Of a stretch of 64,000 nt of DNA, positions 8,206 through 12,800 are shown piece after piece (position 1 is the first letter of the stretch; each line of letters starts with the position of its first letter). The translations under genes and the position numbers were made by a program. The notes under the pieces are model-generated. The model was not told the origin of the DNA. It searched no databases and worked only from the letters and a program-made list of their open reading frames with translations. The DNA lies in the NCBI RefSeq assembly GCF_001426885.1, contig NZ_LMFP01000013.1, positions 298,659 through 362,658 of the forward strand. The letters are read 5' to 3'. The stretch is from Pelomonas sp. Root1444. Its GTDB lineage: Bacteria; Pseudomonadota; Gammaproteobacteria; Burkholderiales; Burkholderiaceae_C.

Positions 8206-8262
8206 GCTCAACGTCAAAAGTCAGCGGGCGGCGAAGCCGTCCGCTGCACTGGGAGGTTAGGA
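8206..8262 (-). other. attC-like site B
   Basis: A 57-bp site, minus-strand direction: TCCTAAC (one base off RYYYAAC) at one end and GTTGAGC (perfect GTTRRRY) at the other. The centre is an 11-bp hairpin with one mismatch and a TTC loop (CAGCGGACGGC/GCCGCCCGCTG). It lies between cassette genes 1 and 2. The upstream gene reads through it before stopping. Confidence 0.8.
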
Positions 8263-8639: not shown

Positions 8640-8760
8640 CCGAGTTCTAACGAATGAAAGGGACTTCCCCGTCCCGAACCAGCCGCGTTGCGGCAGACGG
8701 CAACCAGGTGCCACGATGGGAAGTACGGTTTCTCATCAACTCATTCGGAAGGGGAAGTCC

Positions 8761-9777
8761 ATGACGATTCTGACCGTGGGTATCGATCTCGCCAAGAATG
8801 TTTTTGCGGTGCATGGCGTCAACGAGGCCGGCAAGGCCGAGCTGGTTCGACCGGCCGTACCGCGCGACAAGCTCCATGAGCTCATCGCCAGCCTGGCGCC
8901 CTGCGTGATCGGCATGGAGGCCTGCTCGGGCGCTCACCACTGGGCACGGCTGTTCCAGGCCTCGGGCCACACGGTGCGGTTGATCGCGCCGAAGTTCGTG
9001 ACGCCCTACCGCATGACGGGCAAGCACGGCAAGAACGACGCGGCCGACGCCGCTGCGATCTGCGAGGCCATCCAGCGCCCACACATGCGCTTCGTGCCCA
9101 TCAAGAGCCTGCCACAGCAGTCGGTCCTGATGGTGCACCGCGCTCGCCAGGGGTTCGTCGAGCAGCGCACCGCCACGTTCAACCGCATCCGCGGCCTGCT
9201 CAGTGAGTTTGGCATCGTGCTGCCACTGAAGGCCGCGACCGTGCGGCGGCGCGCTTGCGAGTGCCTGGAAGACCTGCCCGGCTACGCCAACACCGTCATC
9301 GGTGACCTGCTCAGCGAGGTCACCCGGCTGGACGAGCGTATCGCGCAGTACGACGTCCACATTCAGGCCATGTCCAAGGACGATGCACGTGCGCAGCAGC
9401 TGATGCAGCTCGGAGGCGTTGGGCCTACTACCGCCACCTGCCTGCTTGCCATGATCGGCAACGGGCATGACTTCGATTGCGGGCGGCAATTCGCCGCCTG
9501 GCTGGGCTTGGCGCCAGGGCAGTACAGCTCGGGCGGCAAGACCCGGCTGGGGCGCATCACCAAGGCAGGCGACGCCTACCTGCGCAGTCTGCTCGTCCTG
9601 GGTGCCAAGGCGCTGCTCGCGGCGGCCAAACACAAGTCGGACAGCATCAGCCGATGGGCGGTGGCCTTGGCCGAGCGGCGAGGCTACTGGCGGGCGGTCG
9701 TGGCCATCGCAGCCAAGAACGCGCGCATGGCCTGGGCGGTGCTGCGACGAGGCCAGGCGTTTGCACTGCCGGCGTAG
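8761..9777 (+). CDS. IS110-family transposase (DEDD recombinase, IS1111 group)
   Basis: A 338-residue transposase. The N-terminal RuvC-like DEDD domain shows VGIDLAKN (D9), GMEACSGAHHW and KNDAADA. The C-terminal Transposase_20 domain shows QLGGVGPTTA and YSSGGKTRLGRITKAGD with the conserved serine region. The ATG at 8761 is chosen because homologues start there; the frame is open upstream. The length is full, so the enzyme may be active. It would act with a guide RNA made from the element's noncoding part. Confidence 0.95.
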   Translation: MTILTVGIDLAKNVFAVHGVNEAGKAELVRPAVPRDKLHELIASLAPCVIGMEACSGAHHWARLFQASGHTVRLIAPKFVTPYRMTGKHGKNDAADAAAICEAIQRPHMRFVPIKSLPQQSVLMVHRARQGFVEQRTATFNRIRGLLSEFGIVLPLKAATVRRRACECLEDLPGYANTVIGDLLSEVTRLDERIAQYDVHIQAMSKDDARAQQLMQLGGVGPTTATCLLAMIGNGHDFDCGRQFAAWLGLAPGQYSSGGKTRLGRITKAGDAYLRSLLVLGAKALLAAAKHKSDSISRWAVALAERRGYWRAVVAIAAKNARMAWAVLRRGQAFALPA

Positions 9778-10133
9778 CTGCCCCACCTCGCCAACCATCG
9801 AAACCCAGGAGAACACTGAACCACCGCCGTGTGACGGCAAGCGTTGATGACAACAGGTTTGGACCTGCGCGGGGCGTGACCGATGAGCTTAAGGGCGGCG
9901 CAAGACTTGCCGGCTAACGAATGGGTCCCCCGCGTGCGTCCTTCATCAGGGTCCGTGGCATCGCGCGCCACACGAATGACCGTTTGTAGTTTGGCCAGTC
10001 CGCACCTTGTTGTCTTCGCCAGCGCGCGCCGGCGCCACGGCTGCAGGTCTTGAAGGGAATGCAGATGAAGAAATGGCCCGCTGAGCGGGCCATCAGGGAT
10101 GCGTTTGGCTTGACAACTGGGGGAGCCCTTGTA
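9778..10133 (+). ncRNA. Candidate guide (bridge/seek) RNA region of the IS1111-type element
   Basis: The 356 bases between transposase stop and right end carry no gene. In IS1111-group elements the guide RNA comes from this right-hand part. Short matches to the insertion junctions are visible: CTAACGAATG at 9914-9923 is identical to the left junction (8647-8656), TTGTAGTT at 9984-9991 is identical to the right junction (10129-10136), and CGAATGA at 9973-9979 repeats the left end. The 12 bases at 10076-10087 are the reverse complement of the attC flank at 10139-10150, but lie within a 21-base palindrome. RNA boundaries cannot be set by eye. Confidence 0.45.
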
Positions 10134-10183
10134 GTTCGCGCTCAGCGGGCGGCGAAGCCGTCCGCTGCAGCAAATGGTTGAGT
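10134..10183 (-). other. attC-like site C, split by the IS1111-type element
   Basis: In minus-strand direction the site opens with ACTCAAC (perfect RYYYAAC) and has the GC hairpin (GCAGCGGACGGC/GCCGCCCGCTG), but its core is missing here. The core half (GTTAGAA, one base off GTTRRRY) is found on the far side of the insertion at 8645-8651, directly before cassette gene 2. Together the two parts make a 57-bp site. Confidence 0.75.
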
Positions 10184-10187
10184 GGCT

Positions 10188-10559
10188 TCATAGCCAAGCC
10201 ACCGACAACACTGGCATGACCACCGCACCGAAGAACAGGAAGATCGCGAGAAACACCGCCGCGTACCAGCGCACCCCTGTTTGAACAAGCTGTGGCAGCC
10301 GCCCGATCAGCTTGCTTTGCGGTTGCAGGTTGCCGCGTTGCGGGTGAAACCAAACGCAGGCACACAGCAGTGCCCAAGGCACGGCAATAGCCGGCCCGGC
10401 AAGAGTGCTTGCGAAGAAGGCCATCTGAGGCGGAGCAGCGGAAAGCGCAGCGAACAAGATTGCGATAGCCAGGGACGATGCACCAAAGAGCCACCAGCGG
10501 CGCGCATAGAAGCGCTCAGCGACAGATGTGAAGAACTTGGGGGACACGAGCAGAGCCAC
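10188..10559 (-). CDS. Cassette-encoded small membrane protein 3
   Basis: A 123-residue protein with three or four hydrophobic segments (LFGASSLAIAILFAAL, GPAIAVPWALLCACVWF, AAVFLAIFLFFGAVVMPVL) and no recognised family. The GTG start at 10559 overlaps the core of attC D, so translation begins at the very first bases of the cassette. The stop is five bases before attC C. It is on the same strand as the other cassette genes. Confidence 0.65.
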   Translation of the reverse strand: MALLVSPKFFTSVAERFYARRWWLFGASSLAIAILFAALSAAPPQMAFFASTLAGPAIAVPWALLCACVWFHPQRGNLQPQSKLIGRLPQLVQTGVRWYAAVFLAIFLFFGAVVMPVLSVAWL

Positions 10560-10615
10560 TCAACCGTGAAGGTGAGCGGACGCCGTAGGCGGTCCGCTCC
10601 GCTGGCAGGTTAAAC
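10558..10615 (-). other. attC-like site D
   Basis: A 58-bp site with perfect consensus at both ends in minus-strand direction: GTTTAAC (RYYYAAC) and GTTGAGT (GTTRRRY). An imperfect stem (AGCGGAGCGGACCGCC against GGCGTCCGCT) lies between them. The stop codon TAA of cassette gene 4 is part of the inverse core. This is the clearest attC in the array. Confidence 0.85.
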
Positions 10616-10970: not shown

Positions 10971-12800
10971 CGGCTGATTGCGATCGATGCTGAGGAATTC
11001 TTCATCGTCTGATGCGGCGAGCCGCCGGCCCGATTGGATTGGACATTGTGAGTGACCTGGGTGGCGCTTGTGGCGCCTTGCGCGCGGTGGGCATCTTTCG
11101 CATCCCTCATGATCGCTCGCCTGTGTGGGCTATTTTCTCGATGTTGTGCACCAGGCAGAACAGCCGCCACTGCGTACCGACCTTGTCCTTGCCGCGCAGC
11201 GTGAAGCGGCTCAGCCGCTTGTTGTGGCGCAGGTTGGCGAACACCGGCTCGACGGTGGCGATGCGCTGGCTGTAGAGCCGCCGACCTCGCGGGCTGTCGA
11301 TGGCTTGGCGCATGCGGTGCAGCGGGTCTTGAGGATCGTCAGGCATTCGGGTGTGCAGCGCCACCGTTCTGCGCGCGGCGTCTGGCTTGCGGATGCATTG
11401 AGCGCGCTGCGCGCAGCTCGTGCAATCGCTGGCGCTGGCCTTGAAGTCCTGCCGCAGGTACAGCCCCACCTTGTACAGCGCGCCACTGCTTCGCAGCGTG
11501 CAGCCCGCCGGGCATGTGCAGGTGTTGTCGCCATGGAAGACGAAGTCGCCGGTGCCGAAGAAGCCCTTGACCTTCGGATTGGGGCTTTCGCCTCGCGCTC
11601 GCTTGTCGGCGAGCACTTCGCCCTTCGCCTTGTGCTTGGCCTGCTCTGCGAAGCGCTCGTCGCGCTGGCGCATCGCGTTGTCGGCCACGAGGGCCGGGAT
11701 GGCGGCCTCGCACAAGGCCCGGACGTTGTCGTTGGAGTGGTAGCCAGCGTCTGCCGTGATCAAGGTGTCGGGCGCGCGCACCGCAGCCGTCGCTTCGATC
11801 ATGGGCAGCAGCATGTGCTGTTCGGAGCCGGATCCCGTCACCTCGGCGGCCACGATGATCTGGTTCTCGCTGTCCACCGCTGCCTGCGCGGCGTAGCCCT
11901 GCATCACGCCTTTGCCTGTGGCCATTTTGGCGCTGTCGGGGTCGGTCACGTTGCTCTTGAGCTCCTGGCCGCGGTCGTTGCGCCGTGGCTCGTTGCAGGC
12001 AACGAAGTCGCGCGTGGCCTGGGCTTCACGGCGCAGTTCATCGATACGGGCCTGGCGCTTGGCGTCAAGCGCTTGCGCGCTGTCGCCGCCAGCGTCCTGC
12101 GCCTGATGGAGTGCCAGGATCTTGTCGGCCGCCTTGTCCAGCCTCAGCGCCCGGTGCTTGAGCTCCTCATGCGTGCCGCTGCGCGCCTTGCTGGCGTTGC
12201 TGGGCAGCTTGACCCCGTCGATGGCGAACATCTGCCGCCCAATCAAGCCCATGCGGTCGCAGGTGAGCAGCACCTGCGTGAACAGCGGCTGGATCTGATC
12301 CTTCAACTCGCGCACGAACTTGGCAATGTGGGTGTAGCTGGGCTGGCTGTCGCCGCTGATGGCGAGGAACTGCACATGGTGCAGGCAGGCATGCTCGATG
12401 CCGCGGCTGGAGACCAGGCCTCGGCTGTACGCCAGCAGCACGATCTTGAGCATCACGCGCGGGTCGTAGGCACTGGCGCCGACTTCATCGTTGCTGAACT
12501 TGGCATCCAGTGCGCTCAGGTCCAACTCGTGATCGACCAGATGATCCAGCGCGAACTCGAAGGTGCCGGGTTGAATCTGCTCGGCCAGTACAACAGGCAG
12601 AAAGCGGGGACTGCGATCTACGAGCTTGTAGCGTGGCCTGCGCTTGGCCGTCGTCACTGGCGATGACGCAGCGGTCGTCGAAGGGTTCGAGCGCTTCTTG
12701 CGCGGGAGCAAAGTCGACACTTTGACGTCGCTTCAATGCTCGCGGACCGGGCCTACTTCGAAACATTGACAGGCAGTTCGACACTTTGTCATCAGCCCCC
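10971..12800 (-). mobile_element. IS1182-family insertion sequence (ends approximate)
   Basis: The element consists of a full-length transposase gene and short noncoding flanks. The proposed left end (GGGCTGATGACAAAG, minus strand near 12800) shares its first bases with the remnant at 7654 and with GGCTGATTGCGATC at 10972. That would make an element of about 1.83 kb, within the usual IS1182 size. The inverted repeats are weak, so the ends are a proposal rather than a measured boundary. Confidence 0.6.
11107..12720 (-). CDS. IS1182-family transposase (DDE)
   Basis: A 537-residue transposase with the N-terminal DUF772-type domain (ALDHLVDHELDLSAL, then YDPRVMLKIVLLAYSRG) and a DDE catalytic domain. 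Candidate acidic residues are the D in FAIDGVKLPS, the D in TADAGYHS and the E in ATVEPVFANLRHNK. A cysteine cluster precedes the last part (CTCPAGC, CTSCAQRAQC). The GTG at 12720 falls inside a repeated motif (AAAGTGTCGAC), so the true start may be further in. Reading frame is intact. Confidence 0.93.
   Translation of the reverse strand: MSTLLPRKKRSNPSTTAASSPVTTAKRRPRYKLVDRSPRFLPVVLAEQIQPGTFEFALDHLVDHELDLSALDAKFSNDEVGASAYDPRVMLKIVLLAYSRGLVSSRGIEHACLHHVQFLAISGDSQPSYTHIAKFVRELKDQIQPLFTQVLLTCDRMGLIGRQMFAIDGVKLPSNASKARSGTHEELKHRALRLDKAADKILALHQAQDAGGDSAQALDAKRQARIDELRREAQATRDFVACNEPRRNDRGQELKSNVTDPDSAKMATGKGVMQGYAAQAAVDSENQIIVAAEVTGSGSEQHMLLPMIEATAAVRAPDTLITADAGYHSNDNVRALCEAAIPALVADNAMRQRDERFAEQAKHKAKGEVLADKRARGESPNPKVKGFFGTGDFVFHGDNTCTCPAGCTLRSSGALYKVGLYLRQDFKASASDCTSCAQRAQCIRKPDAARRTVALHTRMPDDPQDPLHRMRQAIDSPRGRRLYSQRIATVEPVFANLRHNKRLSRFTLRGKDKVGTQWRLFCLVHNIEKIAHTGERS

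What the first reader, a model, noticed from the sequence alone, without database searches (positions are those of the whole stretch)
9778..10133. Candidate guide RNA of the IS1111-type element carrying attC-junction matches
The noncoding right part holds CTAACGAATG (9914-9923), identical to the left junction (8647-8656), and TTGTAGTT (9984-9991), identical to the right junction (10129-10136); CGAATGA recurs at 9973-9979. The 12 bases at 10076-10087 are complementary to the attC flank 10139-10150. Guide RNAs of IS110/IS1111 elements contain short stretches matching donor ends and target flanks, so this may be a natural RNA that programs insertion into attC.
Basis: partly seen in the sequence, partly recalled or inferred. 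Interest (0 to 1): 0.8.

Follow-up and report, generated by a model that had tools for sequence, protein, structure and literature searches.

The report
RNA-guided insertion element in integron site
This jumping gene carries a short RNA that appears to read out the exact spot in the integron (a gene-capture array) where it inserts; such RNAs are already known from cousins, so this is a well-supported new member of a known kind rather than a new system.

Summary
The element (8652-10133) is an IS1111-family IS inserted between AAC and G of an integron attC site, without duplication. Its downstream noncoding part encodes a predicted guide RNA (seekRNA / bridge RNA). Across relatives the left target guide (9914-9918 plus core G9919) matches the left flank in 55-58 of 60 elements per position over 5 nt, then falls to background. 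The fold has 18 of 33 pairs with compensatory change. TTGTAG at 9984-9989 is a donor guide, not a target match: it equals the element's own right end and co-varies with it over 16 IS1111 elements (0 of 2,000). CGAATGA at 9973 and the 12-mer at 10076 are not supported. Transposase-bound RNAs of this kind were isolated in 2024 for attC-targeting ISKpn4 and ISPst6. No transcript was tested here.

The parts
8652..10133 (+). complete IS1111-family insertion sequence, 1482 bp, single copy in the host genome
   Evidence: Uninterrupted attC sites in 4 related genomes (4 of 5 stretches fetched) read AAC|GTTCGCGCTCAGCGG with nothing between; one copy in own genome
8640..8651 (+). left target flank, ending TCTAAC (attC R' core site on the minus strand, GTTAGA)
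   Evidence: related attC sites
10134..10185 (+). right target flank, remainder of attC, beginning with core G: GTTCGCGCTCAGCGGGCGGCG
8652..8671 (+). left end: 7-nt extension GAATGAA then imperfect subterminal inverted repeat AGGGACTTCCCC
   Evidence: similar in relatives
8761..9777 (+). transposase, 338 aa, DEDD (PF01548) plus Transposase_20 (PF02371)
9845..10005 (+). predicted guide RNA (long seekRNA / bridge RNA), about 160 nt
   Evidence: 34-sequence alignment and consensus fold, 33 pairs, 18 with compensatory change; the ends are inferred
9845..9849 (+). outer stem 5' strand UGAUG (partner CAUCA 9944-9948)
9884..9893 (+). right target guide (top-strand match, T/RTG) TGAGCTTAAG; pairs with right flank, contiguous over GCTCA (10140-10144)
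   Evidence: coordinates
9914..9919 (+). left target guide (bottom-strand match, B/LTG) CTAAC plus core G
   Evidence: coordinates
9939..9946 (+). candidate right donor guide (TCCTTCAT against the left end ATGAAAGG); tentative
   Evidence: covariation test not significant, 145 of 2000 shuffles as good
9984..9989 (+). left donor guide TTGTAG, identical to the element's right end TTGTA plus core G
10075..10091 (.). palindromic hairpin GGCCCGC-TGA-GCGGGCC; not a guide; no T-tailed terminator detected
10110..10133 (+). right end with -35 TTGACA (10110-10115); in the excised circle TA|GAAT would give a -10 TAGAAT at 16 nt spacing
   Evidence: a loose form of the layout (TTGNNN, 14-18 nt, then TA-like|GAAT) fits 55 of 56 elements with both ends, window included; promoter activity not tested

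Best explanation
The feature is the guide RNA of an IS1111-attC insertion sequence. The element excises as a circle whose joined ends form a promoter (inferred). The transcript runs through tnp into the 3' noncoding region, which yields a structured RNA of about 160 nt that binds the transposase (inferred from published relatives). An internal loop of that RNA carries two target guides: UGAGCUUAAG (9884-9893) pairs with the top strand right of the cut, and CUAAC+G (9914-9919) pairs with the bottom strand left of the cut. Together they read AAC|G at the edge of the attC R' site plus the TCA-type right side, a type also present elsewhere in the host genome. A second segment, UUGUAG (9984-9989), matches the element's own right end and probably guides the donor. 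Insertion is between AAC and G, in one orientation, without duplication.
For: Left guide against left flank: match at -1 to -5 in 58, 56, 58, 55 and 56 of 60 elements, then 11 of 58 at -6; for the 16 distinct guide/flank pairs whose guide is not ..TAAC the mean is 4.56 of 5 against 2.35 shuffled, 0 of 10,000. Right guide against right flank: 55 distinct pairs 6.68 of 10 against 4.91 shuffled (0 of 10,000); 31 not attC-like 6.63 against 4.49 (0 of 10,000); 24 attC-like 6.75 against 6.22 (5 of 10,000). Consensus fold: 98.6% of cells paired against 87.3% shuffled and 37-53% when slid; 18 pairs with compensatory change. Donor guide: 16 elements, 7.0 nt own against 4.75 shuffled, 0 of 2,000. Empty sites. 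In the host genome, 4 places fit a TCA-type attC pattern and all 4 have G after AAC and the same 8-nt spacing (the pattern itself demanded TCA; one of the 4 is in the window). Changed guides occur inside attC-guided branches of the transposase tree. In print: ISKpn4 and ISPst6 RNAs co-purify with their transposases and carry the target matches; reprogramming was shown with ISEc11 (PMC11187229).
Against: No transcript or binding data. The window's own RNA is not unusually stable alone (z = +0.71). Some attC-guide elements sit at poorly matching right flanks (L064 3.0, L007 4, L013 4.5 of 10). The right donor guide test is not significant (145 of 2,000). A short 82-nt seekRNA sufficed for ISEc11, so the donor segment may be dispensable.
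Confidence: 0.93

Rival explanations
1. Target choice is by the transposase protein or by attC hairpin structure; the noncoding matches are remnants of past insertions or shared ancestry, not guides.
For: attC sites fold, and the RNA of the window alone is not unusually stable; near relatives share both sequence and target, so matches could be inherited together.
Against: Relatives with 77-79% identical transposase sit at other targets and their loop sequences follow them (L011 CATAAG/CATAAG on the left and 9 of 10 on the right; L015 ATAGC/ATAGC and 8 of 10; L017 GAAAT on the left). Matches stop sharply after 5 nt. Shuffles do not reach the observed fit.
Confidence: 0.04
2. The RNA is guided on the target side only (seekRNA model); the right-end repeat at 9984-9989 is a DNA-level transposase site or a by-product, and donor ends are read by protein through the subterminal inverted repeats.
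For: Short 82-nt seekRNA supports ISEc11 movement (PMC11187229); the candidate right donor guide did not pass its test.
Against: A right-end copy of at least 6 nt lies in the noncoding region of 15 of 16 IS1111 elements tested (L082 has 5, near the shuffled mean), changes with the end, and has CCG just upstream in 15 of 16; donor-binding nucleotides were predicted for three IS1111 elements by others (PMC11208160).
Confidence: 0.35
3. The four matches noted by the reader are chance.
For: Two of them probably are: CGAATGA and the 12-mer in a palindrome.
Against: Shuffle rates of 0.06% and 0.08% for the other two and covariation across relatives.
Confidence: 0.01

Closest known systems
seekRNA of ISKpn4 and ISPst6 (IS1111-attC; Siddiquee et al. 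2024, PMC11187229)
   Same: Same family, same attC target class, NCR downstream of tnp, top-strand match 5' of bottom-strand match
   Different: Different element, in a Burkholderiales-type host; sequences not directly compared because those IS records were not retrieved; RNA not sequenced here
IS1111-attC group (Tetu and Holmes 2008; Post and Hall 2009; known here only as cited in PMC11187229 and from recall; PMC2447020 not held)
   Same: IS1111 element at one fixed place and orientation in attC
   Different: No difference found; ends mapped here with empty sites
Bridge RNA of IS621 / IS110 group (Durrant et al. 2024, PMC11208160)
   Same: Internal loop with left and right target guides around a shared core; a separate donor-matching segment
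   Different: Target guides in reversed order (right before left), RNA 3' of tnp, core a single G here, donor match beside a branched stem rather than in a proven loop
IS4321/IS5075 and IS5708
   Same: IS1111 relatives; IS4321 and IS5708 also carry the right-end match in the noncoding region. Enteric relatives of the window's element sit in a Tn3-family end; IS4321 targeting of Tn21-family ends is from a cited title
   Different: Other target

Membership tests
IS1111 family | DEDD transposase of 330-350 aa with C-terminal PF02371 | tested here: met
   338 aa; PF01548 65.6 bits, PF02371 89.7 bits, both over cut-off
IS1111 family | long noncoding region downstream of tnp | tested here: met
   356 nt after tnp, 109 nt before it (ends)
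IS1111 family | subterminal inverted repeats with short terminal extensions | tested here: inconclusive
   AGGGACTTCCCC and GGGGGAGCCCTT are similar but imperfect; compared by eye (relatives)
IS1111 family | no target-site duplication | tested here: met
   4 uninterrupted attC sites continuous across the junction
IS1111-attC group | insertion at a fixed position and orientation in attC | tested here: met
   attC sequence on both sides; 26 elements, window included, picked by an attC-like right flank and a guide ending AAC, share the geometry
seekRNA | matches to both target strands, top-strand match 5' of bottom-strand match | tested here: met
   9884-9893 then 9914-9919
seekRNA | 70-100 nt RNA (and 145-170 nt long form) co-purifying with transposase | not testable with these tools
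   no RNA data
bridge RNA (IS110 group) | separate donor-binding segment matching element ends | tested here: inconclusive
   left donor guide met (0 of 2,000 shuffles); right donor guide not significant (145 of 2,000)
Rfam families | match over gathering score | tested here: not met
   0 matches in the window at gathering scores

The most novel reading that the evidence does not exclude
The long seekRNA of IS1111 elements in general is a bispecific bridge RNA. Besides the target loop it carries a donor guide that has co-evolved with the right end of each element, seen here in elements whose transposases are mostly only 37-54% identical to the window's (13 of 15; the other two 62-63%), usually just after a CCG. 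Target guides are swapped freely in nature, so one lineage moves between integron attC sites, Tn3-family ends and other sites, and tunes its right guide to attC subtype.
Probability: 0.6. Interest if true: 0.5.

Novelty: new member of a known kind. Interest (0 to 1): 0.36.

Why it matters
It gives a naturally reprogrammed series of RNA-guided recombinases, with target and guide visible for each. It explains how an element can lodge in attC, the part of the integron that moves genes. It also offers covariation evidence on a point that the seekRNA paper left open: what the long form of the IS1111 seekRNA is for.

Tried and rejected
Rejected: CGAATGA (9973) as a guide; the 10076-10087 complement as a target match; my first idea that the top-strand match was CGTTGATG near 9842, whose UGAUG is instead the outer stem; the right donor guide as proven; single-sequence folding as evidence (z = +0.71). 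The right-end patterns I used nearly always demand a G after TA, so the G that begins 70 of 70 right flanks is not evidence of a core; the empty sites are. Likewise the attC pattern demanded TCA, so it does not count other attC types; the window itself also has a TGA-type site at 10561.

Failed or uninformative: two right-guide scripts used a bad anchor (where many rows had no anchor: 270 of 10,000 shuffles as good for 9 attC-type rows; 6, 53 and 70 of 10,000 for all, attC-like and other). They were replaced, in which L024, L025 and L026 take the first candidate anchor by a rule I chose, and L032 and L095 are still mis-anchored. A first donor test scanned too narrow a region and so missed the window's own segment (6.75 against 4.26, 0 of 2,000; window 4 nt); one search widened it. 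The pattern search had its spacing off by one. Viral contigs gave 2 distant loci. ISKpn4 and ISPst6 records were not seen by name in the listed rows (listings capped). No Tn3 transposase was recognised by eye in the ORFs of L043, L067 or L069; the target type rests.

Rows dropped: of 103 loci given to, 9 had no transposase match and 15 no recognisable RNA motif, leaving 79. L080 was left out of the left-guide test because its core was mis-set; L026 was left out of alignment A1 (long hairpin). L115 and L083 were left out of the donor test (ambiguous repeat; L083 gave the same ends as L082).

Full report
What is there. The window holds an IS1111-type element at 8652-10133. Its transposase (8761-9777, 338 aa) matches DEDD_Tnp_IS110 and Transposase_20 over their cut-offs. 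The host genome has one copy. The flanks join as TCTAAC|GTTCGCGCTCAGCGGGCGGCG. I fetched 5 stretches found with the joined flanks in related genomes; 4 of 5 show an uninterrupted attC that runs through this junction, identical over the first 21 nt on the right and ending AAC on the left. So the element lies between AAC and G of an attC site, without duplication. A simple pattern finds attC-like sites on the same strand at 8209 and 10561 (a third hit, 48514 minus, looks spurious).

All exist as stated, and the two junction matches are unlikely by chance (0.06% and 0.08% of dinucleotide shuffles). Chance tests alone do not show function, so I compared relatives: the best 80 of 237 loci from one genome scan, 2 viral loci, and 20 more from a DNA search of 399 genomes of the order. 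Of 103 sequences examined, window included, 79 gave a usable RNA region.

Target guides. At a near-constant distance 5' of the motif UUCAUCA, the last five bases before a G equal the five bases left of the insertion in 58, 56, 58, 55 and 56 of 60 elements. The sixth position matches in 11 of 58. Among 16 distinct guide/flank pairs whose guide does not end TAAC, the mean match is 4.56 of 5 against 2.35 when shuffled, 0 of 10,000 as good; single cases go down to 3 of 5 (L060). Examples: L011 CATAAG, L072 TAATC, L057 TACAT, L046 TTACC. The right guide lies 5' of it. In register, its pairing with the right flank is 6.68 of 10 against 4.91 shuffled for 55 distinct pairs (0 of 10,000). For attC-like insertions only it is 6.75 against 6.22 (24 pairs, 5 of 10,000). 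The window's right guide carries TGA and its attC carries TCA; L019 and L005 do the same, while 15 of 19 TAA-type insertions in that table carry TTA. The other four TAA cases do not fit. Of the 6 TCA-type elements, L032 and L095 were mis-anchored and L039 does not fit. In the host genome 4 places fit a TCA-type attC pattern, and all 4 have G after AAC and 8 nt between AAC and TCA, as here (TCA was demanded by the pattern, and one place is the window's own 8209 site). Poor right-flank fits exist: L064 (3.0), L065 (3), L007 (4), L023 (4.0), and L013, L030, L040 and L070 (4.5) of 10.

Degeneracy. Among 28 elements with guide CTAAC and a readable left flank, the flank has T at -4 in 23, C in 4 and G in 1. 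A U in the guide would pair with the bottom-strand A, or by wobble with G, which suits the degenerate attC core. This is inference.

Fold. An alignment of 34 distinct RNAs gives a consensus of 33 pairs, 18 with compensatory change. 98.6% of cells are paired, against 87.3% for shuffled partners (0 of 500) and 37-53% for slid partners. The two target guides face each other in one internal loop (window 9882-9893 and 9912-9923) between stems 9878-9881/9924-9927 and 9894-9897/9908-9911. The window's single sequence is not unusually stable (z = +0.71).

Donor guide. TTGTAG (9984-9989) equals the right end TTGTA plus the core G. Within the subfamily, right ends TTGTA, TTATA and ATGTA go with TTGTAG (52 of 53), TTATAG (15 of 16) and ATGTAG (1 of 1) in the RNA (the two misses are L022 and L046, where my pattern found nothing, though L046 does show TTATAG). 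In 16 IS1111 elements (among them IS4321, IS884 and IS5708) the longest exact copy of the right end in the noncoding region averages 7.0 nt against 4.75 with ends shuffled (0 of 2,000); 15 of 16 have at least 6 nt, L082 only 5. CCG lies just upstream in 15 of 16 (GGCCG in 8) and CTGCA just downstream in 6. The matching test for the left end was weak (5.88 against 5.52, 145 of 2,000), so the right donor guide stays a candidate. [quoted passage not shown]). The bridge RNA paper predicted target and donor pairing in six elements, three of them IS1111 (PMC11208160: one section and passages).

Retargeting. On a tree of 70 transposases (64 different), five elements that I labelled not attC (L010, L011, L015, L017, L018) form a supported group beside attC-targeting L014 and inside a larger attC-guided set.

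Expression. The right end carries TTGACA, and the joined circle ends would give TAGAAT 16 nt downstream. A loose form of this layout fits 55 of 56 elements with both ends. No promoter and no T-tailed terminator was found in 9700-10250 by simple consensus scans. This agrees with the published view that transcription comes from the circle junction.

Novelty. IS1111 elements in attC, and their RNAs, are published; ISKpn4 and ISPst6 seekRNAs were isolated. Searches of the open library (listings and abstract starts only, apart from the papers named) showed no paper on this element, but subscription papers are mostly absent. I rate it a new member of a known kind. The donor-guide covariation over diverse IS1111 elements is the least expected part.

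Noticed in passing
window 11107-12720 (-): A 537-aa ORF that looks like a further transposase (IS1182-like by eye, not searched) close to the cassette array.
   Followed up: no
host genome contig C29:210171-211115; attC-like sites on C1, C13, C33: A strong integron integrase match (461.5 bits) lies on a contig other than the window's (C13), while TCA-type attC sites occur on C1, C13 and C33, suggesting dispersed cassette clusters without a nearby integrase.
   Followed up: partly
window 8209 and 10561 (+): attC-like sites beside short minus-strand ORFs, i.e. a small cassette array around the element.
   Followed up: partly
L113, L114, L116-L124, L043, L080-L082: In diverse IS1111 elements the right end is repeated about 60-90 nt upstream in the noncoding region; in the window the distance is longer (about 147 nt) because of extra sequence that includes a hairpin.
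   Followed up: yes
L022, L027: Damaged or rearranged relatives (degenerate donor guide in L022; in L027 the right flank repeats the right end), possibly dead copies or tandem insertions.
   Followed up: no
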